Part shown: positions 23,324 through 50,022 of the stretch, piece after piece
Numbering within the stretch: position 1 is the stretch's first letter
Layout: every line of letters begins with the position of its first letter
From: Clarkia xantiana subsp. parviflora
Taxonomy: Eukaryota; Streptophyta; Magnoliopsida; Myrtales; Onagraceae
NCBI GenBank assembly: GCA_036873135.1
Contig: JAPTYO010000015.1
Location: forward strand, 8,287,683 to 8,351,682
Reading direction: 5' to 3'
DNA: 64,000 bases
Program-made: the position numbers and the translations under genes
Notes under the pieces: generated by a model
Told to the model about the DNA's origin: nothing
The model's input: only the letters and a program-made list of their open reading frames with translations
The model's database searches: none

Positions 23324-23359
23324 GGACTAAACTATGGAACGGCCGCTGTTTCATGCGGC
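23324..23359 (+). repeat. left terminal inverted repeat of giant MULE
   Basis: 36 bp, perfect against 49987-50022; the two ends diverge abruptly after base 36. The target duplication caattcgac is at 23315-23323. The promoter of the Ulp1-type gene should lie in the next 200 bp. Confidence 0.95.
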
Positions 23360-23559
23360 GTATTAATAATGTATTTTAATATGAATTTCTGGTTTAATTA
23401 TTTTCGGCCTGGTCTGGTTCGAGTAATTCCGGTTTAACAGCGTTAGGAAGTCCCGTTAAATGTTGTTTGGATGTACCGTGTCTCAACAGCATAGTAGTGG
23501 CCGCACCTTTCAACCTTCACATAAAATCCCGACGTTTTTCTTCGTCTCAAGCTCCATTG

Positions 23560-25676
23560 ATGGCCAGTGAAGGATCATCTTCCCTTCATATTCCAAGTCC
23601 GCTCTTACGGTCGGAGATGTATCTAGTGTAGTGCATTTGTGGTATGGTTCTTCTTGTTTAATTGATTGAATCGGTTTCCTTCGTAGTTAGGTTAATCCTG
23701 CAGTAGCGATGTGATAATTCAGTCGTTTGTCCATTGAGGTTGGATTTATCTCGTGGGTGTCTTTGTATCCCTCGTCATCTGCACTGATGTTACGAGTGTA
23801 TTTAGCTGTTGCATCTAACATTTTTTACGAAATTCCTCAACGAGACATTCTTGCAAGAGTCCTTTGCAATGGTGATTAGCACAGTATAAAATTTGAATAT
23901 TATTCGGTGGATTATGACTAACCATTTCAAAGCAACAGGATCTCCAATCTCAGGAATATGGCTAACCCTTTAAGAGAACAAACCTCTTCGAGTACAAGTC
24001 AGAATGTCTGTTTTTTTATAATGTGTAACTGCTCATTTCAGTTTAAATGTAGAAGTAACCGTTGATAGGTTGATGATTTATAATGTTTGTAGACTTGGTA
24101 TGACGAGTGGTTGAAACACGAGAACCGGGACCAGGTATGTTGCAGTATTACAGCTAATATTGGCGTGCATAATGTTCATCATGTAACGAGGCTATAAAAA
24201 AACAATGAATAGGATGTCAATGGGAAAGTAGCAGTGTTAAGGTATATGGACGCCTGTAGGGGTCCTGAGATTAACAAAGAAGAGCAAATGGTTCTAAATT
24301 ATGTTTTTGCCCAAGCTCCGAGTCGCGTAAGCGAAGAAGAATATGAAAGGTGAGAATTTTGGGAGTCAAAGTTTCATTCGAAAAGTGAAATTCGTTATTT
24401 GAGTAGTGGTTTGTGTTTAACAGAGAGGTGCTCACGCAGAACGCGGTGATATCAGTCAGTCGTCGTTTTATGTTGACGCTTCGTCCCGGAGCATGGATCA
24501 TTGATGATGTAAGTTTCCGTTAGATTGGATTTGTTTGTAGTAGTACACGAAGTGATGATTATGCGTTGGTATGTCTATCTGATTGATGCAGGTAATCAAC
24601 AGTGTAGCGAATATTGTGAACTGCAAACAAAGATCAGAACATAACTGGCGTATTTGGTGCCTACCCACGTGGTTTCAGGTTTGATTAACTAGTGGATGTC
24701 GTTGCAGTAGTGCGTAATGTAACATTAACGGGAGGATCCAATGTTGTTCAATGTTAAATTTACAGCAATTCGCTGCTATGGATGCCGGACGTCAATCTAG
24801 GATGACATCACTTAGCCCATCCTGGTTGGGACTTGGTATTGCGAAATGTGAACGGGTAAGATGATTATATGATTTGGGACATTGTATAGGCTATGTTATA
24901 GTTAGAGATGAGGGTGATGATAGTGTTTTATGGACATATATATATATATCCAGATATACATTCCAATGAATGAAGAATCAACACACTGGTACTTAGTGGT
25001 GATATTACTAAAAGAGGGAGCTGTTTATTATGTCGATACGCTGCCTGGTAATTCAAGTAAAAGGATTGATGAGTGTGCCCGAGTGGTTAGTAAATGAACT
25101 TGTAGCATTGTAAGGTCATTTATGATATACCCTAAGTATTTTATTAGGATTTAACATAGGGAAGAGCAGGTATATTGGATCCAGGAATACTTTCTGCTGC
25201 TTGAGACCAGCATTCCCAATCCAACAACCCGCTATAGGCCGTGTGAATGGGAGATTAAAATTCCTGAGAACGTACCAAATCAAGCATATTTGGGTGATGG
25301 GTGAGAAAGTAGTACCGAGCGCTGAAGAATTATTTTTATTGGTCAGTACTAACGCATAATTAGAAAGATTGAGTCGTCATATTATGAAGATGTGTTAATG
25401 CAGTTTTATTATTCAGGAGTAACTGTGGCATGTACGTTATGCATTTCATGACCGCCCACGATCAAATTCCAAACATAACACCTCGAACGGTCAGATCGTC
25501 CCCTCAATATTGGTAGATTGTGATGTATATTTAAATCTCCAAGTTATCCAATTGAATATTGTCTACAGGTTTTAACCCCAAGACATCGGCTGTCGATGAT
25601 TGCTTCTTTGATACTAGCGAAGAATAACACGATGAGATTTACCGTGGAAGGACGAGCACGTATATACTGTCGTTAG
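23560..25676 (+). CDS. Ulp1-type (C48) cysteine protease, intact, 11 exons
   Basis: Exons are 23560-23618, 23939-24005, 24093-24134, 24213-24349, 24424-24508, 24592-24678, 24766-24855, 24954-25085, 25170-25300, 25417-25489 and 25569-25676. All are GT-AG and phase-consistent, giving 336 residues. The catalytic part shows L-R-P-G-A-W-I-I-D-D-V-I-N, then H-W-Y-L-V-V (His about 200), Y-V-D-T-L-P-G (Asp about 217) and S-N-C-G-M-Y-V (Cys about 280): the His-Asp-Cys order of SUMO/Nedd8-type Ulp1 peptidases. A Gln is present at about 271. The first exon and its donor are the least certain part. It is the leftmost gene of the giant MULE, reading inward from the left end. Every coding exon is open, which suggests constraint or recent spread. 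The substrate is unknown; deSUMOylation is inference from the family. Confidence 0.85.
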
Positions 25677-26322
25677 TTGTGGCTGTAAAAACTGTTGGAG
25701 TAGTAGGAACTACGAAGGAACTGAGGCAATGTAAGTTGTTTTGTCTTTATTATGATGCAGTGGTGTAGGAGTGTTTTGGCGTCCATCTAATCCACGGGGC
25801 AGTTAGACTTGAGTTGGCTGCGAACGAAGTGTGGATGAGGAACAAAAAAAACTAAGAAATCTGTAATTATCGTTTTGTGCGTGTTTGTATAGTAGACTTA
25901 TATTTCTGACTGATCTGTGGAATACAGCAGATATTTTAGATCCTATATATGGTAGACGTCGGATTCCGATTAGTTGATAGTTCAGCACATTGGATCCATG
26001 TTTTGGATCTGATGTACAGAAGAATTCGCGTGCGTTGGTGGTTTAAGTTGTTTTTCGGGTTGAAAGCTAAATGGCCAAGTCTCCGTTGAATTGATAATGC
26101 TGTTTTGTTATATAACATGGCTTCATTTAACACAGTTATGTCGTATTAGCTTGCGTTGATTTGGAAAAAAAAAAACACAGGATCACCAATTGCTTAAAGT
26201 GTAACGCGGTATACACTAACGACACATTGATGCTTTTTGATTGATTTAGTGGACACAACCACCACAACCTTGACTCACTGTCTAAGTGAGCATTCCCCAT
26301 CAGCAGTGTTCCATTCTCCACC
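25677..26322. other. spacer between Ulp1-type gene and broken GRF gene
   Basis: AT-rich, with no coding signal I can support. An A11 tract occurs near 26165. It probably contains 3' UTRs of the two flanking genes. Confidence 0.5.
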
Positions 26323-27400
26323 TCAAGAGTCAAGACTATCCTTCTGCATCGTGAAATTGACATTTGCGAGCTTAAACTTTGCATTCTGAATCTTGAATTT
26401 GTCATTCTCGAGATCATGCTTTGCACTGTCCATCTTCAATTCCACAACCCCCATCTCCAAGTTTGAACAGTTGCTGGTCAAATACTGGTACATTGATTTG
26501 AATTTATCCACTGGTGTCTATCCAATAACCACACATTGCCGGATGTTCCCTGTAAAATAAATTACATCCTCAATCCGGCTCAAGCTGTCGGAATTTACAG
26601 CAATTACAAGTATACTTAATTTGAACCTTAATTGACTGTTTTAATGCCTAATTGAACATAAAAGAAAGAGGAATTCGTTGTGTTAGACCTTAATTATAAG
26701 AACCCTAATTCAGGAAATAGAAATTAGTCCAGTTCAGAAACCCTAAGGTTTACAGCATGGAACCTAATTTGACATATTGAACCACGATTTTCGCGTATGG
26801 GGACGTTAATTGACAGTTTGAATTAAACCCCTAATTCATGTTAACCCGTCTTTCAATTGACAAACCCTATTTAAAACATTGGACTAATAACTGTCTAATT
26901 CGACACACCCACACATCAATTGGACGTTGATTTACAATTTTAATAGAACCCCTTATTGAGGTAAACCTTAATTTTAATGGAGAGACCGGTATTACAAAAT
27001 TGGAGTAATTACTATCCAATTCGACACGCCCACACATGAAATAATAAGAAATAGGCAAAATAACCCGGAAATAGGGGCACCCACGGTACATCCCGGAAAA
27101 GTCCTTCCACGAATAAGCCTGTTTGATTGTGCAAAGCATCGCTGTTGCATCGGCGAGCTTCGTACGGAGGACCGGTTGAAGACCTAACTTGTTTGCAAGT
27201 GCATTGGTCCAGCTAGCTTCGTAAGGGGAGTAGAGCAAAGGATTAGAAGAACAGAAAGCGCAGAGCACAGTACCTGAAAATGGAGGGAAGAACGGTGATT
27301 TTCCATGAAGTCCATATAGGTTAAGGGGTAGTTTTGTCCCATTAAAAGTGAATTTCAGGGAGAAAAATTGTAAAACACATTGTAAAAAACGGGACACGCG
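26323..27400 (-). pseudogene. broken GRF zinc-finger/coiled-coil gene
   Basis: On the reverse strand, a first exon near 27060-27200 encodes Y-S-W-K-D-F-S-G-M-Y-R-G-C-P-Y-F, the middle of a GRF-type zinc finger, directly before a gt donor near 27062. The expected leading C-x-C pair is not visible. A downstream exon starting about 26550 has M-C-G-Y-W-I-D, the second half of the finger. It then shifts frame near 26510 into a Lys/Glu-rich coiled coil ending at 26323. The intact relative at 33593-34477 has the same plan. Frameshift plus missing cysteines make this a likely pseudogene. Confidence 0.6.
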
Positions 27401-27806
27401 TATGATATGAGAAGAAAGAGCTAAATGTTCAGATCCAGGGCCGGCCCAAGAGAATTTGAGGGAGCTAAAGGTTCAGATCCAGGTCCGGCCCAAGAGAATT
27501 TGAGGGTTAAAGCCTCATTTGAATTTGGGGCCTTTTAGATGACTTTAATTGTATAAATACACGACGCTGAACACAACAAATATAAAGGACTAGTATCATA
27601 AATGAGGCCTCCCAAAACATGAGCCCTAAAACCCTAGGCTTAGTGGCCAACAGTTGGGCCGGACCTGTTCTAATTATCAGAACAGAAGGATAACACAGTT
27701 TAGTCTTTCCAAACAGAAGTTCAAAAGTATAAACAGAAGTTCAAAAGTATTTAGGCAAGCAAAAAAATAATTACACACAAGTTCAAAACTAAACATGTTG
27801 TCATTT
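27401..27806. other. spacer with short direct repeat
   Basis: A sequence of about 40 bp beginning aggttcagatccagg occurs at 27425 and again at 27471, in a ccggcccaa-rich context often seen in old DNA transposon debris. Another pair, aaacagaagttcaaaagtat, lies at about 27711-27750. No gene is visible. Confidence 0.6.
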
Positions 27807-29380
27807 CTACTTATAACTATGAACAGGTAAGCTGGACCAGTCGAATGTTTCATACAGCCTTTGAACCTCAGCATCGCATCGACAGTCGATGCAAGTTCGA
27901 TCTTCAAAGAACTCATATTCTTGCGACCAGTTATATACGGCCTTCCAGTGGTTTTTCCTGCATTGTGCTTCAGGTAACGGTGGTGGATCCCTCGATTTTC
28001 TCACAGGCCAGAAACATTTCATATGCTCAATCAAATTTTTCCGACATTCTAGCTCCTTGCCGGCTCTGCAAACCTTTCCGAGGAGGCTGTAGCCTTCTTC
28101 CACTAATGGAACATCACCGTCCCAATTAAAGATTTTGATGAATCCTAGAGTGTAAGTAGCGAGGAGATAGTCCGCATCTGAAGCAGCCTTCAACTGTACC
28201 AGACCAACTGCACCTCCATCATCTATTGCATAATATCCTCCAACAAAATTGGCTACTCCAGCCCTGTATAGAGCTTCGGGGTTGGAGTTAGCCAGGCATT
28301 GCCGGAGAAACGAAGCTTGTTTCCCGGTATTGAAATGATAGCTCATCCCCTGGAGTGAAATTCTCCGCCAAATGTAAGGATGGTCTCCTAGTTCCTTGAA
28401 CCTTTTGCAGCTGATTTAACGGGGAACAATTGTATTTAGTAAAAAGTTATCATTCAAGCAAAGTCGAATAGTTTTGAAACATTTATTATATATAAAAGTT
28501 AATTATTATATCGCGCAATCCGTGTAATTATTGGGTACACGAACAGTTTATAAAAGTTAGTCATTAGTTGAGTATACCACAGCATAATCTTTATGCTATG
28601 AACAAGTTATGGTTTATGAGGGGTAACTACTATATAACATCATAAAATTGTTCCTCAATGTTCATTACCACACAACATACGAAGAATATCTAAGTTTTCA
28701 GTCCTGCAGAATTGCATATTTGTTCCGCAGAACTGCAGTATTTCTGGTTAGTATTAACCCTAACCATAATTTCCATACATTGAAGCAATTGTGAACCCAA
28801 ACACATAGTTTGCAGTTCAAAAGTTTAATACAAGGGTTTTTGAAGACAAGATATAATACTGTATGGTGGTGAATCTGATTTTCGCAACATATAAACCCTA
28901 ACTCATTTAAACAACATTGGTTCTAATAGCATTCATTTTTTTTTTTTCCAAATGCAGTCATTCGTTTCTATATGTATAACCTAGCAGAAATATGACGAAT
29001 ATATAAAACAAAGATGTGTAACGCTATCATATAGATAACAATATTTATAGCAGATATGTTCGTTTTTCTGTTTTTTCCCAACAAATATATATAATATATG
29101 TATATGTATATATATATATACACAGTCCTAGTTGTGTATATATCACAAATAAAACAAATGTCGATGGAAAATTAGACAAAAAATTAGAGAAAGCAGTGAA
29201 ATCAGTGAACAAACTCCTAATTCATGTACTGAAGAAAGGTTTAAATTTATATAGGGAATTTCCAGAAACTTACCATAGCTTCAGCTTGATAAAATCGTGG
29301 GTCGAATAAGCTCCGACACAAATCATGATAAACCATAGCGCCTCCGCGGGCAGGTCTAGAATTGTTGTGCATGCAGCCAT
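27807..29380 (-). CDS. F-box-like protein A (236 aa, two exons)
   Basis: Exon 1 is 29380-29274 and exon 2 is 28410-27807, joined through an 863-bp intron with GT-AG ends. The N-terminus (about residues 8-50) reads L-D-L-P-A-E-A-L-W-F-I-M then C-C-K-R-F-K-E-L, an F-box-like pattern. The body has N-P-E-A-L-Y-R-A-G (about 79-87), typical of plant F-box proteins of the At1g67623/At2g35280 type, in which a Sel1-like helical region follows the F-box. The C-terminus is Cys-rich (C-I-D-C-R-C-D-A-E-V). Two further copies lie in the same element. F-box proteins normally bring substrates to SCF ubiquitin ligases; that role here is inference. Confidence 0.8.
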
Positions 29381-29864
29381 CTTGGAGAAAGATGAAGAAA
29401 TTAGTTACGAAACGTAAGTGGTTCACCATGGTTAGTATAGCAGTAAAGGAAACGTACCTGTAAAAAAAGGTTGACTGTCTGTTTGAACAAAGTATCTGAG
29501 AGAACACCGTCGATAGAGACGATTTACGCGCAGAAGGAAGTTAGAGAGACGTCGGAGGAAAACTGCTTCGGACTTGAGGAAGAAGATAGTTGAATTTGGG
29601 AAAATAAAGTAATTTTGACGACGGTCCGTTGAATCAAGGAGAAAATGATTCTCTACAGCCGTGTTTACAGTTGGCAAATATGTGGTGGCTCTTTAGCGAA
29701 TGGTTTGATAACATGTTTTATAGCATTTTTACTCTCCGCCACGAGGCACCACACTGTGTCATCTGTTGGTACGGTCCGTTCCATTTAATAATTACTCTGA
29801 ATCAAGTATATGGCGTAATTATTTGTCCATTTGTAAAGCGTAATTAATTCTATTAATCCAGGGC

Positions 29865-32659
29865 GTGTAATGTTATTATATATTTGTTCAAAATGTTATG
29901 GAATAAGTATGAACTAATTTTTTTCATTTGAAGTGCATTATAATAGTATATTACATACAAATTTGTTAAATTATTTAATGTCCACTAAGTTAATATCTAA
30001 CTGTGGTTTAAGGGATAGGGTATGGTTAAGGTTTAGAGTAAAGTTGAAGAGTGTTTATTGCATTCAACCATACTTAGTTGTTAAATCACTTGAAATGTTG
30101 TGTTTAATGTTATTATATATATGCTCTAAATGTTATGGAATAAGTATGAACTAATTTTTTTCATTTGAAGTGCATTATAATAGTATATTACATACAAATT
30201 TGTTAAATTATTTAATGTCCACTAAGTTAATATCTAACTGTGGTTTAAGGGATATTGTATGGTTAAGGTTTAGTGTAAAGTTGAAGAGTGTTTATTGCAT
30301 TCAACCATACTTAGTTGTTAAATCACTTGAAATGTTGTGTTTAATGTTATTATATATATGCTCTAAATGTTATGGAATAAGTATGAACTAATTTTTTTCA
30401 TTTGAAGTGCATTATAATAGTATATTACATACAAATTTGTTAAATTATTTAATGTCCACTAAGTTAATATCTAACTGTGGTTTAAGGGATAGGGTATGGT
30501 TAAGGTTTAGTGTAAAGTTGAAGAGTGTTTATTGCATTCAACCATACTTAGTTGTTAAATCACTTGAAATGTTGTGTTTAATGTTATTATATATATGCTC
30601 TAAATGTTATGGAATAAGTATGAACTAATTTTTTTCATTTGAAGTGCATTATAATAGTATATTACATACAAATTTGTTCAATTATTTAATGTCCACTAAG
30701 TTAATATCTAACTGTGGTTTAAGGGATAGGGTATGGTTAAGGTTTAGAGTAAAGTTGAAGAGTGTTTATTGCATTCAACCATACTTGATTGTTAAATCAC
30801 TTGAAATGTTGTGTTTAATGTTATTATATATATGCTCTAAATGTTATGGAATAAGTATGAACTAATTTTTTTCATTTGAAGTGCATTATAATAGTATATT
30901 ACATACAAATTTGTTCAATTATTTAATGTCCACTAAGTTAATATCTAACTGTGGTTTAAGGGATAGGGTATGGTTAAGGTTTAGTGTAAAGTTGAAGAGT
31001 GTTTATTGCATTCAACCATACTTAGTTGTTAAATCACTTGAAATGTTGTGTTTAATGTTATTATATATATGCTCTAAATGTTATGGAATAAGTATGAACT
31101 AATTTTTTTCATTTGAAGTGCATTATAATAGTATATTACATACAAATTTGTTAAATTATTTAATGTCCACTAAGTTAATATCTAACTGTGGTTTAAGGGA
31201 TAGGGTATGGTTAAGGTTTAGTGTAAAGTTGAAGAGTGTTTATTGCATTCAACCATACTTAGTTGTTAAATCACTTGAAATATTGTGTTTAATGTTATTA
31301 TATATATGCTCTAAATGTTATGGAATAAGTATGAACTAATTTTTTTCATTTGAAGTGCATTATAATAGTATATTACATACAAATTTGTTCGATTATTTAA
31401 TGTCCACTAAGTTAATATCTAACTGTGGTTTAAGGGATAGGGTATGGTTAAGGTTTAGAGTAAAGTTGAAGAGTGTTTATTGCATTCAACCATACTTAGT
31501 TGTTAAATCACTTGAAATGTTGTGTTTAATGTTATTATATATATGCTCTAAATGTTATGGAATAAGTATGAACTAATTTTTTTCATTTGAAGTGCATTAT
31601 AATAGTATATTACATACAAATTTGTTAAATTATTTAATGTCCACTAAGTTAATATCTAACTGTGGTTTAAGGGATAGGGTATGGTTAAGGTTTAGTGTAA
31701 AGTTGAAGAGTGTTTATTGCATTCAACCATACTTAGTTGTTAAATCACTTGAAATGTTGTGTTTAATGTTATTATATATATGGTCTAAATGTTATGGAAT
31801 AAGTATGAACTAATTTTTTTCATTTGAAGTGCATTATAATAGTATATTACATACAAATTTGTTCAATTATTTAATGTCCACTAAGTTAATATCTAACTGT
31901 GGTTTAAGGGATAGGGTATGGTTAAGGTTTAGAGTAAAGTTGAAGAGTGTTTATTGCATTCAACCATACTTAGTTGTTAAATCACTTGAAATGTTGTAGT
32001 TTAATGTTATTATATATATGCTCTAAATGTTATGGAATAAGTATGAACTAATTTTTTTCATTTGAAGTGCATTATAATAGTATATTACATACAAATTAGT
32101 TCAATTATTTAATGTCCACTAAGTTAATATCTAACTGTGGTTTAAGGGATAGGGTATGGTTAAGGTTTAGAGTAAAGTTGAAGAGTGTTTATTGCATTCA
32201 ACCATACTTAGTTGTTAAATCACTTGAAATGTTGTAGTTTAATGTTATTATATATATGCTCTAAATGTTATGGAATAAGTATGAACTAATTTTTTTCATT
32301 TGAAGTGCATTATAATAGTATATTACATACAAATTAGTTAAATTATTTAATGTCCACTAAGTTAATATCTAACTGCGGTTTAAGGGATAGGGTATGGTTA
32401 AGGTTTAGAGTAAAGTTGAAGAGTGTTTATTGCATTCAAAGATACTTAGTTGTTAAATCACTTGAAATGTTGTAGTTTAATGTTATTATATATATGCTCT
32501 AAATGTTATGGAATAAGTATGAACTAATTTTTTTCATTTGAAGTGCATTATAATAGTATATTACATACAAATTAGTTAATTTATTTAATGTCCACTAAGT
32601 TAATATCTAACTGTGGTTTAAGAGATAGGGTATGGTTAAGGTTTAGAGTAAAGTTGAAG
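29865..32659 (+). repeat. 237-bp satellite array inside the giant MULE
   Basis: About 11.8 head-to-tail copies with an exact 237-bp period (unit landmarks at 29933, 30170, 30407 and so on), stretching to 238 bp in the last units through a one-base insertion (ttgtagttt). Divergence between units is very low. Each unit contains a telomere-like patch (agggatagggtatggttaaggttta). Because 237 is divisible by three, the same 73-codon open frame recurs in eight units; I treat this as a by-product, not a gene. The right edge breaks into gctaacttcccgacagggg. Confidence 0.97.
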
Positions 32660-33035
32660 AGCTAACTTCCCGACAGGGGTCAGTTTTGGCAAAGGTACAA
32701 CCCCGCATTAAATGCTACTGCGGCATAAAGCTATGATTGTCCATGTCTTATCAGTCCATATATATGTGAATTATATTTTACTTAATAAGATTACATTCCA
32801 ACAAAAGGGTAATTCAAATAACTGTTTCGGTTTACCTTTTTTGAGAAACTGTTTCATAATGAAGATGAAACAATGTTTTATAATGAAGGCGAAACAGTGT
32901 TTCATAATGACACCAGTTATGAAAAGATACATCATTTTGTATTTTTAAATTTGTTAACAGATACTGAATTCTGGTTATTATAGTAGTTGCACTTTGTAAT
33001 TGGCCAATAAAAGTATACTATGCACATAGAAGTTA
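32660..33035 (+). repeat. internal segmental duplication, copy 1
   Basis: This segment after the 237-bp array resembles about 41960-42310. Shared runs include gagctaacttcccga, ccccgcattaaatgctactg, a duplicated cataatgaag/gaaacaatg motif and ttgttaacag. Here the flanking array is long; at the other copy it is one or two decayed units. Confidence 0.85.
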
Positions 33036-33592: not shown

Positions 33593-34477
33593 ATGAACGG
33601 GAGCTGTCTGATGTCGCACCCACCACATTCCCAAAACACGGGCGATATTCCTCCGACTGAATTACGGAGGTGCTTTTGCGGAGCAGTCTCCACAATGGTT
33701 ATGTCATATACGTGGGAGAATTTTACCAGGAGGTTTCATCGGTGCCCTTACTGGAAGGTATTGCTGCTTAGTGTTTACGGCTTTTACGACTTTCATGGTG
33801 AACAACTCAATTTTTTAACGATATTGCTGTCCAATATTCAATTAGGGATTTGATTTACTGCTGATTTGGGGTTTCCTGTATTGAAATTATATGGAATTGA
33901 ATTGAGTTTTAAGTTTTGTCAATAAGGGTTAGTATATACCAATTAACTGTTCAAGGATGGTTAATAGAATTTGGCTTTGATTGTACTTGGATTATATAAT
34001 GTTTTCTCATTTAGAAATTAGGAATGGTAAACAGTAAGTAAATGTTCAATTAAGGTGAAATATGTTGATTACTCTTATGTCTGTCTGTATTGTGGGCAAT
34101 GCATACAGGTTGGTGAAGAGACTGGATGTAATTTTTTTGGGTGGGAAGATCCGTTAATATGTGGTTACGGAAATAGAGCAATACATGTATTCCAATCACT
34201 GCACCAAACACTGGGTACCAGATGTTCAACCCTGGAGATGGAGAATGAGTTGTTTGTGGTTGACATTGCTGAACTGAAGAGTAATAATACATCCCTGGAG
34301 ATAGCGAATGAGAATTTTGTGTTTGATATTGCTGAATTGAAGGCCGAGATTGCACTGTTGGAGATGGAGCATGAAAAATTGAATCTGGAGAATGCACAAT
34401 TAAGATTTGGGATCAGGATTTCTACATATATAGCAGGTGTTGTAGGTTTATTTTGTATTTTCAGGAAAATAGTTTAG
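33593..34477 (+). CDS. GRF zinc-finger, coiled-coil, membrane-anchored protein (177 aa)
   Basis: Exon 1 is 33593-33757 and exon 2 is 34109-34477, phase 0, GT-AG. The finger spans the intron: C27-F-C29-G, then R-F-H-R-C51-P-Y-W, then C62-N-F-F-G-W-E-D, matching the C-x-C...C...C-x-F-x-W layout of GRF-type zinc fingers. A coiled coil follows, with two approximate repeats of (L-E-M/I-x-N-E-x-F-V-x-D-I-A-E-L-K). The protein ends with a hydrophobic stretch (T-Y-I-A-G-V-V-G-L-F-C-I-F) and R-K-I-V, a plausible tail anchor. GRF domains bind nucleic acid in some proteins; the role in this element is unknown. A broken paralogue lies at 26323-27400. Confidence 0.8.
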
Positions 34478-38239: not shown

Positions 38240-39813
38240 AAAAAAGGTTGTGGGTTAAGTTTTAGGGTATGGATAAGGTATACAGGGAATGTTGGAGAGG
38301 GGTTAGTGGTTTCAAGCAAACACAGTTTGTTAATAAAATGTAATTATTTAATTTTTAATATTTATTTTATTTATTATAATAAATAGTAACTTAATATATT
38401 GTAGTTGCATTATAATTAGATTCCCTACATTTAATTAAATATGTAAATGTCCAATTTGATTGTAACTATGGTTGTGGGTTAAGTTTTAGGGTATGGATAA
38501 GGTTTACAGGGAATGTTGGAGAGGGGTTAGTGGTTTCAAGCAAACACAGTTTGTTAATAAAATGTAATTATTTAATTTTTAATATTTAATTTTATTTATT
38601 ATAATAAATAGTAGCTTAATATATTGTAGTTGCATTATAATTAGATTCTCTACATTTAATTAAATATGTAAATGTCCAATTTGATTGTAACTATGGTTGT
38701 GGGTTAAGTTTTAGGGTATGGATAAGGTTTACAGGGAATGTTGGAGAGGGGTTAGTGGTTTCAAGCAAACACAGTTTGTTAATAAAATGTAATTATTTAA
38801 TTTTTAATATTTAATTTTATTTATTATAATAAATAGTAACTTAATATATTGTAGTTGCATTATAATTAGATTCCCTACATTTAATTAAATATGTAAATGT
38901 CCAATTTGATTGTAACTATGGTTGTGGGTTAAGTTTTAGGGTATGGATAAGGTTTACAGGGAATGTTGGAGAGGGGTTAGTGGTTTCAAGCAAACACAGT
39001 TTGTTAATAAAATGTAATTATTTAATTTTTAATATTTAATTTTATTTATTATAATAAATAGTAACTTAATTTATTGTAGTTGCATTATAATTAGATTCCC
39101 TACATTTAATTAAATATGTAAATGTCCAATTTGATTGTAACTATGGTTGTGGGTTAAGTTTTAGGGTATGGATAAGGTTTACAGGAAATGTTGGAGAGGG
39201 GTTAGTGGTTTCAAGCAAACACAGTTTGTTAATAAAATGTAATTATTTAATTTTTAATATTTAACTTTATTTATTATAATAAATAATAACTTAATATATT
39301 GTAGTTGCATTATAATTAGATTCTCTACGTTTAATTAAATATGTAAATGTCCAATTTGATTGTAACTATGGTTGTGTGTTAAGTTTTAGGGTATGGATAA
39401 GGTTTACAGGGAATGTTGGAGAGGGGTTAGTGGTTTCAAGCAAACACAGTTTGTTAATAAAATGTAATTATTTAATTTTTAATATTTAATTTTATTTATT
39501 ATAATAAATAGTAACTTAATATATTGTAGTTGCATTATAATTAGATTCCCTATATTTAATTAAATATGTAAATGTCCAATTTGATTGTAACTATGGTTGT
39601 GGGTTAAGTTTTAGGGTATGGATAAGGTTTACAGGGAATGTTGGAGAGGGGTTAGTGGTTTCAAGCAAACACAGTTTGTTAATAAAATGTAATTATTTAA
39701 TTTTTAATATTTAATTTTATTTATTATAATAAATAGTAACTTAATTTATTGTAGTTGCATTATAATTAGATTCCCTACATTTAATTAAATATGTAAATGT
39801 CCAATTTGATTCC
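38240..39813 (+). repeat. 225-bp satellite array inside the giant MULE
   Basis: Seven copies, with the landmark gggttaagttttagggtatgg at 38252, 38476, 38701, 38926, 39151, 39376 and 39601 (period 224-225 bp). A degraded partial unit lies at about 39825-39885. Units are nearly identical. The core tagggtatggataaggttta resembles the core of the 237-bp satellite, but the rest differs. Confidence 0.97.
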
Positions 39814-39889
39814 CTATGATTGTCCCTACAGTTTGGTAATAAAATGTAATTATTTAATTTTTAATACTTAATTTTATTTAATACCTAGC

Positions 39890-41394: not shown

Positions 41395-41454
41395 TAGTAC
41401 ACGTTTTTGAATCCCCCTTTCAGTGTTCAGTTAGTAAACATGAACTTATTTTGG

Positions 41455-41960
41455 ATTTGAAGTGCATTATGATTGTAGTACATACAAATTACTTAAAATA
41501 TTAAATGTACAAACAGTTCAAAACTAACTGCGGTTTACGGTTTATGGTATGGATAAGGTTTATTCTATAGTTGACGAGTGTTTATTTCGTTCAACTATAA
41601 CTAGTGGTTAAATCATTTACAATGCTGTGTATAATTTTATGGGTGTTGCTACAAACTGTGAAATTTTATGTGAAATTTCTATAGAAAGTGAAATAGGGTC
41701 CCACCAAGTACCGATACATTTGTTCATTTACTTTCTCTTTCTTACTTTCTATTGAAATTTTACAAGAAATTTCACATTTTAAAGATTTACTCTAATTTTA
41801 TTATGTCTGTTCTAATTGTTATGACGTGACTGTGAAGTAATTTGCCAGTTGCTGTGTATCTAATATTTGTATGCACAAGTTACTTCAATTATTTGACATA
41901 CAAATTAGTTAAAATCTGACTATGGTTTAAGGTTTAGGGTATGGTTAGTAGACTTGCAGA
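41455..41960 (+). repeat. decayed single relatives of the 237-bp satellite
   Basis: About 41455-41640 aligns by eye with a full 237-bp unit (tgcattatgat, acatacaaatta, ggtatggataaggttta, gagtgtttatt). A second part unit is at about 41870-41950. Between them lies a small inverted repeat (gtgaaattttatgtgaaatttctat against its complement), possibly a tiny MITE at about 41658-41780. Confidence 0.75.
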
Positions 41961-42310
41961 GCTAACTTCCCGATAGGGGTCACTTGTATCACAGCTGCAA
42001 CCCCGCATTAAATGCTACTGCGGGATAAAGATATGATTATTCATGTCTTATCAGGCCATAAATATATGTCATTCGAAGTCCAATTACAGAAAGTGAAATT
42101 CATAAAAAGTTGTATTTCAAATTAATGTTTCGTTTTAATGAATATGAAACAATGTATTATAATGAAGCTGAAACAATGTATTATAATGAGAGCAGTCCAA
42201 GAATGATACATCAGTTTGTACTATTAATTTGTTAACAGAGACTCACTTGTGGTTATTATAGTAGGTGCACTTAATAATTGACCAATACAATTATACAATA
42301 TTCCTTCGCA
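41960..42310 (+). repeat. internal segmental duplication, copy 2
   Basis: Matches 32660-33035 in order and orientation, with substitutions and small gaps. As in copy 1, it directly follows satellite-type sequence. Confidence 0.85.
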
Positions 42311-43653
42311 ATAAATATTTTCTTATAATAAACACATTATTTTATCCAAATAAATCGACATAAACTGTAGGGCTTGTGTGTACCATTTCGAGGGACACAA
42401 CATGTATGTACTTTTTGACAACTAAATTAATCCCTACTAGGTATTTAAAGATGACCCGTATATAATGAGAAATAACTAAACCCTAAACCCAAACCACTGA
42501 ACCCAAATGACTACACCGTATACCGAAAAACTTGCAAATTGACAACACATTAATGAGAGATTGTTGACATAAGTATCATAGATTAGAGATTAACAGTGGT
42601 TTTGTTAGTTCATCGCTGACTAAAATAAGGATCATACAAATTATTAGTTACACCGACTACAGTTGTATGACTGGACTATATTGAACTATACAAGGACTAA
42701 CTAATAACATCATGTGGATAAAATGTTAGTTACATTTTTAATGAATTACACCACATCCCACATGGTAGACTTAATACTGTCCACATAATAAAAAAACTAT
42801 ACCGTACCTTTGTCTGAGAACAAAAATCTACCGGATGAAATTAATGCTACATAGCTAAAAGTGAAGGCAAACACATTGGAGTGGACAGCCGTTTAACCAA
42901 GATTTTTGACATAAACATATGATTAAACTTGCATGCAGCACTCTAGCCGACGTGGTTGCAGCTGGGGAACGGTGATGTAATTGAAAGAGAAATAGACTAT
43001 GACTTTATGAATAATTTTTCTCAGACCAATCATAACAAAAATTATACAATTATAATATGGAATTCTATGTTTAACAGCTATGGAAATATATGTATTGAAT
43101 GAACTAATCAAATGTACTATATGTACTATATATACACGACAGTTATATTTATATAATAAAATTTTAATGGTTTTCACATATAAATAAGTATCTAAGGTTT
43201 CTTAAATATATACACTTGTGTATATGAGTGATGACCTTACAAATTAATACAATACATCAACTATTAAGTATATAGGTGACATTTACATTGATTTTATTAA
43301 GTACAATTGTTTCTTTATGGAATTTGTTTTTCTAATTTTACTTAACACAAAATATTTGTTCATTTTATTATGTGAATGTTTTTGCCAAACTATCATATTA
43401 TTAGCGGTCTAAAAACAAAAAGCACCAACTAGTGAATTCTTTAGTATATAATTAATTCTCCGACCCCTATAATGTACAGTGTACTGTTGAATATAGGCCA
43501 AGGGAAGATTAAACTATTACAAGAAGGGAACTGGCACAGCTAATCTTCATCGTCAATTCCAAACTTGTATCCTCGAACCCTTCATCTCCTCTCTATCTAG
43601 TATCTACCTTCAACTTTAAGGAAAATACCCTTTGATAATTGGTCGTCTCAACC
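42311..43653. other. AT-rich spacer upstream of the transposase gene
   Basis: No gene seen. The last few hundred bases should hold the transposase promoter. Confidence 0.5.
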
Positions 43654-46600
43654 ATGTCAGCCAACGATAAACAACCTGGAAACGGAGACTCTGAAGGTTA
43701 GCTCCAAACCCTTGTTTTCATGTACTTGTTTCCACCCTCAAGCATGTTTTAACTTGACAATGCTTCAGTACTGCGTGTTCATATAATTTTACCCCACTGA
43801 GTGTTCATACATTTTGACTACCTCGCCAACAAAAATAATTATACATTAGTATTGTCATCCTAAGTATACATTTTCTGCAGCATGGCCGTCTCAACAGAAG
43901 TTGACACCTAAACCCAGAATTTAATTTGAGGCTTTTTGATATTGTTCCTTTTTTTTGTTAAATTTTTTTTTTTTAAAAAATTTATGATATGTATACGTGG
44001 AGTCCCTAGTTAAAGGAATCTTATAAAATATTCATTCATAAAATTTCATTTTTAGTTGATAAATATAGTAAAAAATAACAGTAGTTCATTGAAGTTTTCT
44101 TGTTACATTGGTGAAACTGTTCACTATTTTTTTGAACTAACTTTGTTTTCGTATGACTGAATTCATAAAATCGTTGACTAACTTTAGATTCTAAAATTCA
44201 ATTCGACGAAAAATGCAATATAATTTTGTGCAGATTTTAATTTGTTCTGGAAAAGATATATAGCAAAAAATAAAAAAGATAAAACATGAAAATAATTGTT
44301 ACATACTGGAATCGACACCGTGACTACTTCCCAAAAAAACACAATCTCGTTCCACTGACATACAAATGCATCTGGTTATAATTACGACATATTTGTTAAA
44401 TGTTTATAACGTCCACCAAGTTAAAACGAGGCCTACAAAATTGTGAGGGCCAAAGCCCAGCCCTTGGTGGCTTGGGCCTTAAGCCGGGCCTCATTTTCTG
44501 GATGATAACTTGTATGTTCGATTTATTGCTTTGCTTGTGAGTTGTCCCAGACTATGTACTCGAGCTTTAAGTCGGATTCGTACACTGAACCTGACTGAGG
44601 TCCTGACACAATTGGTATGACTATAGGTTTGCAGTACGAGAACCCTATACATTTCGACGAGTTCTATGATCCGATTCCCCCAAGCAAGGAAGATGACCCG
44701 CCAAAATTCTTTGACTCACTTGATCATGTACTGTCGTGGTACACTGCATACGGTCAGGAATGTGGGTTTAGGGTAAGAAGGCACTATAGTCATAAAGACC
44801 CAAATGGAGCAGTAATTCAGTGTGTCTTTGCTTGCAACCGGGAGGGGAAACGTAGAGAGGTGTACAAAAATCGACCAGACCGCAAGAGACAAGCCACAAC
44901 AGAAACACGTGTCGGTTGTAAGGCAAGGCTATCATGTAAATTAGTACCAGTAAATATGAAGTGGTGTATCGACGCATTCCACAATGACCACAACCATGAA
45001 TTACTTCCGAATACTTACAGTCAGTTCATCTCCGGTTTTAACAAACGCGTTCCATCGGCTGACACTTCACTAACGGAGACAATGAAACAGGTAGGAATAC
45101 CCGCTACCAGAGTCTTCGATTTCCTAGCAGTTAGGGAGGGTGGATACGAGAAGTTGGGGTATAGGAAGCGGGATTTGTACAACTACCTAGATATGATACA
45201 GAAGAAACTGACTGGCCAGAATGATGCGGATCGGGCGTTAAGCTATATGTCCGGAAAGGAGGTCAGTGACCCTCAATTCTTCTACGCCATCGACTTGGAC
45301 GAACAACAGCAGCTATCCAGATTAATTTGGATGGATGGTGGATGGATGGTGGATGTAGGTCTGACTACGCATCTTTCGGCGATGTAGCTCTAATGGATGC
45401 AACCTACAAAACAAACATATATGGCCAACCCTTGATTGTAATCGGCGGCGTAAGCAACCACCACAATACGCTCATATTTGCCACCGGTCTTCTACATGAC
45501 GAAACAGAAGCCAGTTACATATGGTTTTTGCAAAAATTTCGTGAAGGTATGGGTAACTCTGCCCCAAAATGCCTGATAACAGACGGCGACACGTCAATGG
45601 CGTTGGCAATTCAGCAGGTCTTCCCTGAGACGAGACATCGATTGTGTGGATGGCACTTATCTAGGAACGCAGACAGCCATATAAAAATTCCAGGATTCCA
45701 AAAGGAGTTCCAACAGTTGGTGTATACCCCTATGACAGAAATGACTTTCGAAAATGAGTGGCTTAAATTTTTAGCTAAATACGGGATGGATGGAGAGGGG
45801 GGGTTGGGAGGTGGGGGGGGGGGGTTGGAGGACGGAGAGGGGGGGTTGGAGGAAGGAGAGGGGGGGTTGGAGGAAGGAGAGGGGGGGTTTGAGAAGGACC
45901 CGTTGAAGAAAGCAAAGAGGTGGCTGAGGGCCCAGTACCGTCGTCGCTCGAAATGGGCAGCAACTTTCTTTAGGGGAGTTTTCTGCGGTGAGGCTAGGAC
46001 GACGCAACGTATAGAAGGTCTCAATGCTAAATTCAAGAACCAGCTAGTCAGGGGGACATCGATGCGCCTGATAGTGTTGCTCAAGTATGCCGACATCCTG
46101 TTGCAAAAGTCAAGGCAGACAAACTTTGAATCCGAGTATACGGCAATATCGACACTAGTGCAGAGTTCTGTAACAGTCCTAAAACAAATTGAGAAGAATG
46201 CACGCAAGATTTACACTCCAGCTTCGATGGTCAGGATAGTCAAACTGATCGGACTGGTGGGTGCAACGATAGTCAACGGCCCGGTGAGATCAGAGACAAC
46301 CACCGTGTATACGGTCAAAGACTAAGACAACTTTTTTATAGGTGAATGGACGGTTCAATATTGTGAAGCCACGACCGAGCTCAATTGTGATTGCCTGTAT
46401 TTTGAGACTGTCGGCTTGCCTTGTGAACACTCGTTTGCAGTAATGAAATACGAGCATCTGCAGCAAATTCCCGACAATTTGGTGAACAATAGATGGACGA
46501 TGAGGCCAATCAATAGTCCAAGTATACCAACAGGCATTCCGTCCGAGGCCCCACGCAGCATACACTCTCACTACGCCTCGATTTTATCAGCAACAGTAGC

Positions 46601-47069
46601 AGCAGGTGATGATGCCACGTTTAAAAAGGCACTGCATGAATTGAACAATCTAGGCGACCTGCCCCGTCATACACCTCGACAGACTACAACATCGCCAAAG
46701 AAGACTGCTGAAAATCCCAGGAATTCAACTAAGAAACGAACTGCCAGGAAGAATAAATGTAGTCGTAAACGACCAGACAATAAGGATACAGGTAAAGAAG
46801 ATACTGGTCTGCGCTCTAATCATCTACCCAACAGAAATGAAGTTCCCCCTGATTACAACTATGATGATTTACCCACCCAAGAAGAAACTACAACTGATGT
46901 ACCTAACACCCAAGAAGAAACCACAACTGACATACCACCCAGCCAAGAAGACACAATTACTGATGTGCACAATATTTACGCCAGCCCTTATACTTCTGCT
47001 TGGTCGGTGAACAACAATCCAAATTTCTACTACCCATCGTTCAGTTTCCTCCGCTCTTATCGAAATTAA
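43654..47069 (+). pseudogene. FAR1/FHY3-type MULE transposase gene, two disabling lesions
   Basis: Exon 1 is 43654-43696 (M-S-A-N-D-K). A long exon starts at 44627. It encodes a FAR1-type DNA-binding domain (C-x(n)-C zinc-type residues ending H-N-H-E-L), then a MULE DDE core with L-M-D-A-T-Y-K-T-N (Asp near 45396), I-T-D-G-D (near 45580) and T-Q-R-I-E-G-L-N (Glu near 46010), and a SWIM finger C-D-C-L-Y-F-E...C-E-H near 46389-46430. A ggatggatggt repeat at about 45326-45357 shifts the frame inside W-M-D-G...S-D-Y-A-S-F. An in-frame TAA lies at 46324-46326. A G-rich minisatellite at 45785-45893 inserts an in-frame Gly/Glu tract. The tail (46620-47069) is Lys-rich, then has T-Q-E-E-T-T-T-D repeats. 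The element is probably no longer self-mobile. Confidence 0.88.
45785..45893 (+). repeat. G-rich minisatellite within the transposase coding region
   Basis: Repeats of ggagagggggggttggag with length variation, in frame, coding for E-G-G-L-E-E-G-type units. Runs of seven to ten G could form quadruplexes on this strand. The insertion lies between the DDE Asp residues and the Glu region. Confidence 0.9.
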
Positions 47070-47361
47070 CCAACTTGTAATTTCATATACTGCTCAACAC
47101 ACCGGGTGTATCAATCAGATTCCCGTTAACCTTGCAGATTATGTTACCTAAGAAAAACGTGTAAAATAGGTTCTAACACAGACAGCCAAACGAATATGCT
47201 GCAGTTTCCTAACAGCATGCGTATTTCTTAGCAAACACATGTTTTATCAGTCAACATGCTGACGGACACAATTGAAATTCATGTTGGACCTGTTATTTTA
47301 GGCAGCTGATTTATCATCACAACAAAAAATCCTGTAGGGGAGAAAAAACATTTATTTAACA

Positions 47362-47436: not shown

Positions 47437-47839
47437 TAGTCTAATATCGTATACATTTAATAAATACACAAATAATTGGTTTATAGTTGCTACGTTGGAT
47501 TGTCTATAATTTGGACCTTGCCGTCCATTACTCTCCATTCTGCAGAAAACCCTAGAAGACACATCAAGGAAACGGCGAAAGACAACAGCTCCATCGGCTT
47601 CGTCGCGTCGACTCAACTGTCTTTTGTTGCATCTCTAGGTAATATAATTGTTCTATGTTAGGTTACATTTTCAATATCATCATCTAATTGTCAATCGTCT
47701 TTGCACTTCATCGATTTTAGGCTACAATTACTGCAGTTGAATAAATCAAACTGTAATTCTTTTCGGAATTCATGTGTTTGTGTTAATTTTTTGTTAAATA
47801 GCTGATACTTCTACGATTCGATGTGTTTCAGATATAATA

Positions 47840-48415
47840 ATGGCTGATCTCGGTAAGTTCGACGGTAACAACTTGTCTTTCTTATTGGTTGTGGTTTTTT
47901 TTAAATTGATATGCCTTTACTAAACAAGCAGTTTAAAACGGGACTTGCAGATGAGCTTCAGATGTTGGATTATTTCCTGTCTCGAACTAATATTTCATTT
48001 CGAGTAAGAGTAGATGAGAGCACGAAAACAAAATTAGTAAGTGAATTCAACAATTCATCTTTTGATGTCATGGTACTGGCTCAGTGGATTGGATACTTGT
48101 TGTTGGTTTGATGATTCAATTAAATTGTACTTTAACTGAATTATGTAGCCTAACCCCAATGGGTTTATCCAAGCTGCACGTCTGGAAAACCGTCGAACGC
48201 TCCTTGTAATTGACCGGTCTGAGCTGGTAACGCCGATGCAGCTTGCTAAACGCTATATCACTAATTGCGAACCATCGGGTCCAAACCCATGGCGATACAG
48301 CATAAGGAATGGGTGGGCAGAATTTTACACCAGAGCTGGACTAAAGGAATCAGATGAGCTGACTGTTGTGTTTGCTGGTGAAGACATGGTGTTTGTGGCA
48401 GTGGAACGTTCCTAA
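47840..48415 (+). CDS. small B3-like domain protein (121 aa, three exons)
   Basis: Exons are 47840-47852, 47951-48036 and 48149-48415, GT-AG and in phase. The short leader M-A-D-L-D-E-L-Q-M-L-D-Y-F is followed by S-F-R-V-R-V-D-E, then N-P-W-R-Y-S-I-R-N-G-W-A-E-F-Y-T-R-A-G-L and E-S-D-E-L-T-V-V-F. The G-W-x-E-F-x(5)-G-L-x-x-x-D-E pattern is that of plant B3-type DNA-binding domains. It is the last complete gene before the right end of the giant MULE. If it binds DNA it could regulate host genes or the element itself; this is inference. The tiny first exon is the weakest part. Confidence 0.7.
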
Positions 48416-49051
48416 TAAAATCTACGGCGTTAAATGACACAACATTGGAGCCCAATGGGCGTGTATTATGACTTTTTTGGGGTTTACAAACTATTAGGGA
48501 TGTATGTTTCCCAATAAGTACGACTGAATGTTGCAATGGGTGTTCATCAAACTTATTTCCTGGTTTTCTTCTTAATGGGGATATATGTGTCCCCTTGTGT
48601 GGATGTTTAAAAAATGATTCATAAAAGGCAATAACGACTATAAAAGAGCCATCGAGGATATTGAATCCAGTAGTAATAATTCAGCAGGAGCACATTATGC
48701 TTATACATATCTATTAGCTAGAATCTGAATGCAAAGATTGTTAAAATAAAAATCATTCAATATTGCAGGAACCATGAATAAAACCATCAGAAGTTTGCCT
48801 TGTCTATTAAACTGCTCAGATCGACCAACTTGACACTCCTTTCCAATAACGCCTGTATGGCTGTCCCTTTTCCTGTTCTGAATTATCCCAAATATCCATC
48901 CCTTGTTTGTTCCAGAACCAGATGCACGTTCCCAAACGGATACATCAAAATCAGCTAGCTCAACGGCTTCTGGTGTCTGGTATTTACCAAGCATTACAGC
49001 TCGATAACACTCCTTGATACACATACCTCGATATGACTCCATCAAACAACT
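48416..49051. other. spacer with an unassigned reverse open frame
   Basis: A reverse open frame at 48701-49045 (114 codons) contains S-V-W-E-R-A-S-G-S-G-T-N-K-G-W-I-F-G but I do not recognise a family. It overlaps the transposase ghost at its 5' end. I cannot call it a gene. Confidence 0.35.
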
Positions 49052-49265
49052 ACCTAAACATGATACAGAAGAAATTGACTGGGCAGAATGATGCAGATCC
49101 AGCGTTAAGCTATATGTCCGGAAAGGAAGCCAATGAACAACTGTTCAGTTTCCTCCGCTCTTATCGAAATTAACCAACTTGTGATTTCACATACTGCTCA
49201 ACACACCTGCTGTATCATTCACATTCCCGTTAACCTTGCAGATTATTTTACATAACCAAAACGTG
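49052..49265 (+). pseudogene. ghost of a second, internally deleted transposase copy
   Basis: 49052-49135 matches 45178-45265 of the transposase gene (aactacctaaacatgatacag, then agctatatgtccggaaagga). The next bases match 47038-47165, the gene's C-terminus, stop and 3' flank (cagtttcctccgctcttatcg). About 1.77 kb is missing at the join, so this is a remnant of another element copy with most of the transposase removed. Confidence 0.85.
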
Positions 49266-49986
49266 TCCAACCAATTATCTCCTTCGCTGGAATTTTTATA
49301 GTCACTCAACCATAAATTGAATGAAACCTAAACTGATTGAAAAATCCTTTTGCACGAAACACAAATGTATGTATCTACACTTTCAAAAACTGTTTCTTGT
49401 TAAACAACATTCAATTCATCAGGATTGCATTAAAACAGAATGTAATGTTCGAAAATGAATGGCTATGGATGTATTGAACAGCAAATTAACACAATACAAC
49501 AGTAATAGATGTTCAATTCATCAGTATCACTATCCCCGTATCCATATACAACCAACAACACGTCTCATAAATATCAACAAACAGACAATTGAAGCTTCAT
49601 ACTGCAAGATGAAAACAAGCTTCAGAATGGACTTGTCTGGCCTGTGAAATGGAGCAACCACATTCAAATCCCTCCTTCGAGAACCGACCGCAGCGGAATG
49701 ATTCAGCAATGGAGGTAGGGAAGGAGGTAAGGGAAGGCGGGTGAAGAAGGATAAGGGGTAGCTCCGTCGAACTAGACTACAGACCCAAAACGTAACGTAT
49801 AGTAAACGGCAAGTTCAAACGTCTGTTAAAACTTCACATCCGGTCTGGATAAATCTTCGAACCGTGGTCTAATTCACTTAAGTGATGTGATATGATGTGA
49901 CAAGAACCACTAAACCGCATTTTTTCTCTTTTAAACGAAATTACAAGTTTGCCATTAAATACAGGCCTCTGATTGGTGGAAATTAG

Positions 49987-50022
49987 GCCGCATGAAACAG
50001 CGGCCGTTCCATAGTTTAGTCC
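49987..50022 (-). repeat. right terminal inverted repeat of giant MULE
   Basis: 36 bp, exact complement of 23324-23359. The target duplication caattcgac is at 50023-50031. Confidence 0.95.

What the first reader, a model, noticed from the sequence alone, without database searches (positions are those of the whole stretch)
23324..50022. A 26.7-kb Mutator-like element with perfect 36-bp ends and nine cargo genes or gene remnants
The two ends are exact 36-bp inverted repeats and the same 9-mer (caattcgac) borders both sides, so the whole block moved as one unit. It holds Ulp1 protease, GRF finger (two), F-box-like (three), MULE transposase, a transposase ghost, B3-like, and two satellites. Ulp1-carrying MULEs are known (Kaonashi type), but one unit combining Ulp1, F-box, B3 and GRF genes at this size is something I do not know to be described. 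The ends are far shorter than in classic Mutator.
Basis: partly seen in the sequence, partly recalled or inferred. Interest (0 to 1): 0.95.

Follow-up and report, generated by a model that had tools for sequence, protein, structure and literature searches.

The report
Giant gene-carrying plant jumping element
This 26.7-kb block is one copy of a plant jumping gene that exists in dozens of copies in its genome, unusually large for its kind, and it carries protein-degradation and SUMO-pathway genes kept working by natural selection, which suggests that the element uses them for its own spread.

Summary
Confirmed and extended. The block has exact 36-bp inverted ends and a 9-bp target duplication; a paralogous uninterrupted site exists. 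It is one member of a high-copy family of giant FAR1/MULE-type (Jittery-like) Mutator elements in a 695.6-Mb genome. I paired 25 complete elements, 10.8-50.2 kb, median 26.2 kb, 18 of 25 between 24.9 and 31.3 kb; 23 have 9-bp duplications with at most one mismatch, one 8 bp, one only after a 2-bp offset. Genome-wide, 58 of 68 close F-box1 copies have a transposase in the same relative orientation, and 28 of 64 close transposases are open for 800 aa or more.

Most cargo is not junk. Ulp1 protease, a GRF finger and two F-box/TPR proteins are spliceable whole genes, and F-box1, F-box2, Ulp1 and the transposase show purifying selection between element subfamilies. The GRF gene is lost in one sub-branch. 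The two satellites are related; the first is tied to the element at 29 of 29 listed loci. Third F-box, GRF1 and B3 are weak. Cargo function (counter-silencing through ubiquitin/SUMO) is inferred. New variant of a known kind.

The parts
23315..23323 (.). left target-site duplication CAATTCGAC
   Evidence: single copy in the paralogous empty site
50023..50031 (.). right target-site duplication CAATTCGAC
23324..23359 (+). left terminal inverted repeat, 36 bp
   Evidence: 40 left ends listed at 96-100% over 200 bp, of 377 candidates
49987..50022 (-). right terminal inverted repeat, 36 bp
   Evidence: 40 right ends listed at 98-100% over 200 bp, of 389 candidates
23958..25676 (+). Ulp1-like SUMO protease gene, 10 exons, 310 aa, with the H/D/Q/C positions of the family
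   Evidence: model; Pfam C48 E=2e-14; SENP2 (1tgz_A) E=2e-6; free of stops, gaps and splice defects in 13 of 20 other copies
26451..27200 (-). GRF1, decayed GRF zinc-finger paralogue
   Evidence: 70% DNA match of 26451-26569 to GRF2 exon 2, inverted; no Pfam hit; missing in L009 and L016
27807..29380 (-). F-box1 gene (F-box + TPR_27), exons 29274-29380 and 27807-28410, 236 aa
   Evidence: intact in 16 of 20 other copies; dN/dS 0.25-0.41 between subfamily majority sequences
29868..32661 (.). satellite A, 237-bp unit x 11.8, between divergent F-box1 and GRF2
   Evidence: an array of 235-238 bp period in 19 of 20 other left parts, 3-11.8 units; next to F-box1 at 29 of 29 listed loci
33593..34477 (+). 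GRF2 gene, exons 33593-33757 and 34109-34477, 177 aa, GRF finger + coiled coil
   Evidence: largely deleted in L021, L023-L026
36678..37466 (-). F-box2 gene (TPR_27 paralogue of F-box1), exons 37363-37466 and 36678-37275
   Evidence: dN/dS 0.25 and 0.37
38246..39811 (.). satellite B, 225-bp unit x 7, about 66% identical to satellite A
   Evidence: exon 2 open in 3 of 3 copies, dN/dS 0.38, p=0.07; profile of F-box1/2 does not match
41440..42299 (.). decayed satellite-related repeat and a tail shared with 32478-33021
42358..42440 (+). remnant of the 3' end of the third cargo gene
   Evidence: 76% DNA match to 41315-41397
44599..47069 (+). transposase: FAR1 + MULE domain + SWIM-like; broken in this copy (frameshift near 45328-45355, stop 46323-46325); G-rich repeat 45788-45898
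   Evidence: open for 800 aa or more in 28 of 64 close genomic copies
48149..48415 (+). B3-like exon, weak, no sign of constraint
   Evidence: E=0.017; dN/dS 1.71
49046..49266 (+). transposase ghost: pieces like 45179-45269 and 47039-47162
   Evidence: first piece also seen in copy L019

Best explanation
This is one copy of a family of giant autonomous cut-and-paste DNA transposons of the Mutator superfamily (FAR1/MULE, Jittery-like transposase). Shown: it moves as a unit of about 26 kb bounded by 36-bp TIRs, makes 9-bp target duplications, is present in dozens of copies with conserved gene order, and its Ulp1, F-box and transposase genes are whole in many copies and under purifying selection across element subfamilies. 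Inferred: the transposase cuts at the TIRs; copies with broken transposases, this one included, would move in trans; the F-box proteins (SCF adaptors) and the Ulp1 SUMO protease act on host ubiquitin/SUMO control of silencing or repair to favour the element; the homologous tandem arrays between its divergent genes are binding platforms for an element-encoded factor, by analogy with VANC target arrays of Arabidopsis VANDALs. I give about 0.95 to the giant-element part, 0.85 to cargo selected for the element's benefit, and 0.35 to the counter-silencing mechanism.
For: TIR/TSD. Other copies: 40 left and 40 right ends scored of 377 and 389 candidates; 25 elements paired; duplications checked in all 25. 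Paralogous empty site. Conserved order; 58 of 68 F-box1 copies with a transposase within 60 kb in the expected orientation against 3 pairs in any other. Transposase frames: 28 of 64 open for 800 aa or more with no stop in the match; 23 F-box1/transposase pairs intact in both by these measures (which corrects 29 and 24). Selection: F-box1 dN/dS 0.25/0.41/0.39, p=5e-6, 5e-3, 4e-3; F-box2 0.25 (p=7e-4) and 0.37 (p=0.01); Ulp1 0.34, 0.27, 0.47 (p=0.009, 0.017, 0.19); in a scan of 326 ORFs, 7 of the 8 with p below 0.02 are F-box or transposase ORFs (one of them antisense). Satellite A tied to the element, variable in length.
Against: No expression, methylation or binding data. B3 shows no constraint. 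GRF2 is inconclusive (dN/dS 0.66, p=0.22, window against L022; exon 2 alone 0.33, p=0.02, window against L019) and is largely deleted in L021, L023, L024, L025 and L026, so it is dispensable for amplification. GRF1 is missing in L009 and L016. In 6 of 8 copies read in detail the transposase is in different frames on either side of a G-rich repeat, which may be real decay or homopolymer error. The number of ORFs passing the scan (8 of 326) is close to the 6.5 that p below 0.02 would give by chance; their identity, not their number, is the evidence. VANC-like proteins were not found. Counts are lower bounds because only the best candidates were scored.
Confidence: 0.8

Rival explanations
1. Passenger cargo: a MULE captured host genes (transduplication) and merely carries them; they do nothing for the element.
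For: Gene capture by MULEs is well documented (PMC13317346 passages, PMC2528002 passages and section 10); GRF1, B3 and the ghost look decayed; GRF2 is lost in five copies.
Against: Whole spliceable genes with purifying selection measured between element subfamilies for F-box1, F-box2 and Ulp1; 58 of 68 close F-box1 copies have no stop beyond one TAA, which in the window is intronic.
Confidence: 0.1
2. The cargo serves the host: the element spread useful F-box/Ulp1 genes and selection acts at the plant level on copies.
For: F-box relatives at about 31-45% identity exist elsewhere in the genome, some without stops.
Against: High copy number, different insertion sites and close linkage to a transposase fit selection on the element.
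Confidence: 0.1
3. An old composite: two MULEs flanking a host gene cluster, or a host cluster with nested insertions, that only looks like one unit.
For: A transposase ghost and internal duplications show a layered history.
Against: Same order at many loci with private 9-bp duplications at the outer ends; a paralogous empty site.
Confidence: 0.03
4. Assembly or chance artefact.
For: Tandem arrays and G-runs are hard to assemble.
Against: Many loci on different contigs with matching duplications; 0 of 420 swapped pairings match.
Confidence: 0.01

Closest known systems
Jittery-group MULEs of flowering plants (group 36 of PMC6446971, passages read)
   Same: Transposase with N-terminal FAR1 domain, MULE domain and SWIM-like C-terminus; TIR-bounded.
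   Different: The table gives one ORF and TIRs of 39-292 bp, or none, for the plant subgroup; here 36 bp, about 26 kb, and several cargo genes and remnants.
Ulp1-carrying MULEs: KI-MULEs/KIU VANDALs, melon, rice and grapevine MULEs (PMC2528002 section 10; PMC13317346 passages)
   Same: Carry an Ulp1-type protease gene; Jittery-like grapevine families do too.
   Different: KI-MULEs lack TIRs; no F-box, GRF or satellite module is mentioned in the passages seen; in grapevine Ulp1 lies downstream of the transposase, here near the opposite end.
Arabidopsis VANDAL21/VANDAL6 with VANC anti-silencing proteins (PMC5735166 passages)
   Same: Tandem arrays in non-coding parts of the element that vary in copy number; in VANDALs these hold binding motifs of the element's own protein.
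   Different: No VANC-like protein found here; binding untested; unit lengths and genes differ.
Hvu_Abermu of barley (PMC9168764 passages)
   Same: Probably autonomous MULE with extra ORFs, many copies, 9-bp duplications, Ka/Ks below 1.
   Different: 8.2 kb, 138-145 bp TIRs, three ORFs, called much larger than the MULEs it is compared with; this family is about three times longer.
Pack-MULEs (PMC6431247 passages)
   Same: Gene-derived sequence between MULE TIRs.
   Different: Those of Jiang et al. 2004 do not exceed 7 kb and rely on a transposase in trans; here whole selected genes travel with open transposases in many copies.

Membership tests
Mutator superfamily (MULE) | MULE transposase domain | tested here: met
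   PF10551 E=1e-26, 93.5 bits, cut-off 27.6
Mutator superfamily (MULE) | 8-11 bp target-site duplication next to the ends | tested here: met
   9 bp in 23 of 25 elements with at most 1 mismatch, 8 bp in one, one after a 2-bp offset
Mutator superfamily (MULE) | catalytic DDE residues | not tested
   no residue-level alignment made
Jittery group | FAR1 domain at the N-terminus | tested here: met
   PF03101 E=2e-18
Jittery group | SWIM or CCHC at the C-terminus | tested here: inconclusive
   SWIM 16.7 bits, cut-off 19.6
Jittery group | placement in a transposase tree | not tested
   no named plant reference set was at hand; the one protein search, with F-box1, found no relatives
Jittery group | single ORF | tested here: not met
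   selected genes besides the transposase
KI-MULE / KIU VANDAL | Ulp1 domain gene | tested here: met
KI-MULE / KIU VANDAL | no terminal inverted repeats | tested here: not met
   36-bp TIRs
KI-MULE / KIU VANDAL | VANC-type protein | tested here: inconclusive
   no such Pfam hit on the Ulp1 gene or the ORFs scanned; not every frame was scanned
Pack-MULE | no transposase gene | tested here: not met
   transposase present; open in 28 of 64 close copies
Pack-MULE | gene fragments rather than whole genes | tested here: not met
   whole spliceable genes

The most novel reading that the evidence does not exclude
The family is a self-contained plant transposon that encodes its own ubiquitin/SUMO counter-defence module: F-box adaptors that redirect SCF ligases against silencing factors, a SUMO protease, and homologous satellite arrays between divergent genes that serve as element-specific binding platforms keeping the unit unsilenced, so that a 26-kb DNA transposon can multiply to dozens of copies.
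Probability: 0.3. Interest if true: 0.95.

Novelty: new variant of a known kind. Interest (0 to 1): 0.82.

Why it matters
MULE cargo is usually thought of as captured gene fragments in elements of a few kb. The review of giant transposons that I read in passages says that no Pack-MULE reported by Jiang et al. 2004 exceeded 7 kb and that transposition efficacy drops over 6 kb of cargo (PMC6431247). Here a MULE family of about 26 kb with whole, selected cargo genes has reached dozens of copies, many with an open transposase. It gives a natural, many-copy system for testing whether a plant transposon uses F-box proteins and a SUMO protease against host silencing, and what tandem arrays inside a transposon do. 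Such elements could be misread as gene clusters and satellites in annotation.

Tried and rejected
Plasmid and viral collections: a plasmid search with 23324-31000 and a TIR pattern search of viral contigs found nothing. The protein database gave no relative of F-box1 exon 2, so plant proteins seem not to be held; I made no further search of it. A single-sequence fold of F-box1 exon 2 had mean pLDDT 35.5 and was not used. An intron in the G-rich part of the transposase was considered and dropped: the only likely donor I saw is missing in copy L020. A profile of F-box1/2 did not match the third cargo gene better than shuffled sequence, so I do not call it an F-box protein. One ORF at 35008-35238 passed the selection scan but is frameshifted in L020 and L019 and was dropped. 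The 9-mer of the duplication also occurs at 27017 and 44199 inside the element; the TIR does not occur there. A short motif (GGTATGG[AT]TAAGG, 19 times, all in the arrays and none elsewhere in the window) is shared by both satellites; any piece of a tandem unit would repeat, so it is only a lead. It also showed that GRF2 is largely deleted in five copies, which I had not noted before.
Full report
OBSERVATION. The window holds exact 36-bp inverted repeats at 23324-23359 and 49987-50022, flanked on both sides by CAATTCGAC. Beyond about 39 bp (97%) the two ends are not alike.

IT IS A FAMILY. The assembly that holds the window has 695.6 Mb in 59 contigs; no species name is given, and a plant is inferred from domains such as TPR_27, described as plant repeats, and gypsy-type neighbours. 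The first 200 bp of the element gave 377 candidate places, of which 40 were scored, all at 96-100% identity; the last 200 bp gave 389 candidates, 40 scored, all at 98-100%. Matching listed left and right ends by contig, strand and distance gave 24 elements including the window; a 25th (L019) was closed by finding its right TIR in fetched sequence. Lengths run from 10,814 to 50,208 bp, median 26,218, 18 of 25 between 24.9 and 31.3 kb. Ends whose partner was not among the listed 40 stayed unpaired, so this is a lower bound.

TARGET DUPLICATIONS AND EMPTY SITE. Window, L020 and L016 have exact 9-bp duplications and L019 an 8-bp one. Of 21 further pairs, 19 are exact over 9 bp, one has one mismatch, and one (5 mismatches as placed) fits only if its right end is moved by 2 bp, as its incomplete hit (query 3-200) suggests. 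None of 420 swapped pairings fits at one mismatch. The two flanks of the window, joined, match a second locus on another contig without interruption: 71% over query 125-376, across the junction at 200/201. There the sequence CTTCAATTCGACCGAA runs through with one copy of the 9-mer. This is a paralogous, not allelic, empty site.

CONSERVED CONTENT. I fetched the first 10 kb of 20 other copies. Ulp1, GRF1, F-box1 and an array of satellite A period lie in the same order in most; identities are 97-100% in one group and about 87-97% in the others, repeat stretches lower. Exceptions: GRF1 is missing in L009 and L016 and partly in L017; L018 is split by an inner insertion, and its F-box1 lies further in. 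GRF2 is largely deleted in L021, L023, L024, L025 and L026 and gone with the deletion of L016. Further stretches of L012, L019, L020 and L022 continue the order into satellite B through GRF2 and F-box2, and L019 and L020 through the transposase to the right end. L016 is a 10.8-kb form lacking about 33.5-47.3 kb. Genome-wide, an F-box1 search gave 68 places with 80% identity or more over nearly the whole second exon, shorter matches left out (150 of 332 candidates scored); 58 of these 68 show no stop apart from one TAA, which in the window lies in the intron. A search with the window's first transposase piece gave 64 places at 92% or more over nearly its whole length, shorter matches left out (146 of 399 candidates scored); 28 of the 64 sit in an open frame of 800 aa or more with no stop in the match (one search had counted 29, one with a stop). 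58 of 68 F-box1 places have a transposase within 60 kb in the orientation seen in the window, most of them 14-21 kb away, against 3 pairs in all other orientations; 23 pairs are intact in both genes by these measures.

CARGO GENES. Ulp1: ten exons give a 310-aa protein with Pfam C48 E=2e-14 and an alignment to SENP2 that covers the His, Asp, Gln and Cys regions (the naming of these as catalytic is recalled). Under strict rules (length, no stop, splice dinucleotides; the last codon itself was not in the model) it is intact in 13 of 20 other copies; L010 and L011 fail by one splice site only, L019 has a deletion, L021 a stop and a splice change, L026-L028 one stop each. F-box1: intact in 16 of 20 others; L009 is frameshifted, L016 has a stop, L018 lacks it in the first 10 kb, L026 failed by truncated extraction or damage. 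GRF2: intact in the window and in 7 of 8 other copies where it was fully covered; L019 is frameshifted; the five deletions above come on top. F-box2: open in window, L012 and L022 and L019, frameshifted in L020.

SELECTION. F-box1 was compared between three subfamilies (9, 5 and 3 sequences of 18 gapless ones; L016 was left out). Between majority sequences dN/dS is 0.25, 0.41 and 0.39, with binomial p of 5e-6, 5e-3 and 4e-3 against equal rates. F-box2: 0.25 (window-L019, p=7e-4) and 0.37 (window-L022, p=0.01). Ulp1 (groups of 9, 6 and 3; L009, L016, L018 left out): 0.34 (p=0.009), 0.27 (p=0.017), 0.47 (p=0.19). Third cargo gene: 0.38, p=0.07; GRF2 exon 2: 0.33, p=0.02; B3-like exon: 1.71, p=0.86; GRF2 whole, window-L022: 0.66, p=0.22. 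As a control, 326 ORFs of the aligned element with at least 5 changes were scanned in all frames (window against L019): 8 had p below 0.02, about as many as chance alone would give (6.5), but 7 of the 8 are the two F-box1 exons, F-box2 and one antisense of it, and the three transposase pieces; the eighth, at 35008, is frameshifted in other copies. The copies differ in place and share the ends, so this selection most likely acted while the genes were in the element.

TRANSPOSASE. FAR1, MULE and a sub-threshold SWIM match. The window copy is broken by a short tandem duplication that shifts the frame and by an in-frame stop. L020 has one open frame of 819 aa. In 6 of 8 copies read, the stretches on either side of a G-rich repeat of variable length are in different frames; errors in G-runs cannot be excluded. 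An internally deleted ghost lies near the right end.

SATELLITES. Satellite A (237 bp x 11.8) lies between the divergent F-box1 and GRF2, satellite B (225 bp x 7) between the divergent F-box2 and the third gene. They are about 66% identical, and a decayed third stretch with a shared tail follows the third gene. An array of 235-238 bp period is present at this place in 19 of 20 other left parts with 3 to 11.8 units (L027 may be cut by the end of the stretch). So the array is part of the element.

HOW IT LIKELY WORKS. Cut-and-paste by the FAR1-MULE transposase at the TIRs is inferred from family knowledge; the duplications and the empty site show insertion. Selection on Ulp1 and F-box genes across copies makes a role for the element likely. 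SCF adaptors and SUMO proteases suggest interference with host protein control; the best precedent for element-borne anti-silencing is VANC in VANDALs, where arrays in non-coding parts hold the protein's binding motifs (PMC5735166, passages). That link is analogy, not test.

KNOWN OR NEW. Ulp1 in MULEs, Jittery-like ones included, is known (PMC2528002 section 10; PMC13317346 passages). In the MULE table seen in passages, the plant Jittery subgroup has one ORF (PMC6446971). An 8.2-kb barley MULE is described as much larger than those it is compared with (PMC9168764 passages). Arthropod MULEs are 1.4 to 10.0 kb (PMC13359780, start of the abstract in the listing). The listings of my paper searches showed me no MULE of this size or with F-box plus Ulp1 plus GRF cargo; I opened six papers in part, and the library holds open-licence papers only, so this is not proof of absence. 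I file it as a new variant of a known kind.

Noticed in passing
genome C15:7463454 / 7475700, C1:28618971 / 28561782, C9:38070539 / 38194181: Transposase matches at 58-59% identity with F-box relatives at 37-45% in the same relative orientation, about 12, 57 and 124 kb away: perhaps an older sister family with the same cargo.
   Followed up: no
genome C13:23241606, 23270033, 23294178: Three F-box1 relatives at 45% identity, free of stops, on one strand and 24-28 kb apart: host genes or another giant element.
   Followed up: no
window 45788-45898: G-rich 21-bp repeat inside the transposase coding region, with runs of G of differing length in the 8 copies read.
   Followed up: partly
window 16140-18422: AAA ATPase domain pieces in neighbouring ORFs upstream of the insertion, a likely CDC48-type gene.
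   Followed up: no
window 3238-3887: 26-bp tandem repeat, 25 copies at 95%, just after gypsy-type integrase sequence.
   Followed up: no
window 54862-58858: Gypsy-type retrotransposon ORFs on the minus strand in the right flank.
   Followed up: no
genome C58:9076759-9077979: Paralogue of the insertion site at 71-84% identity, hinting at a duplicated host region.
   Followed up: partly
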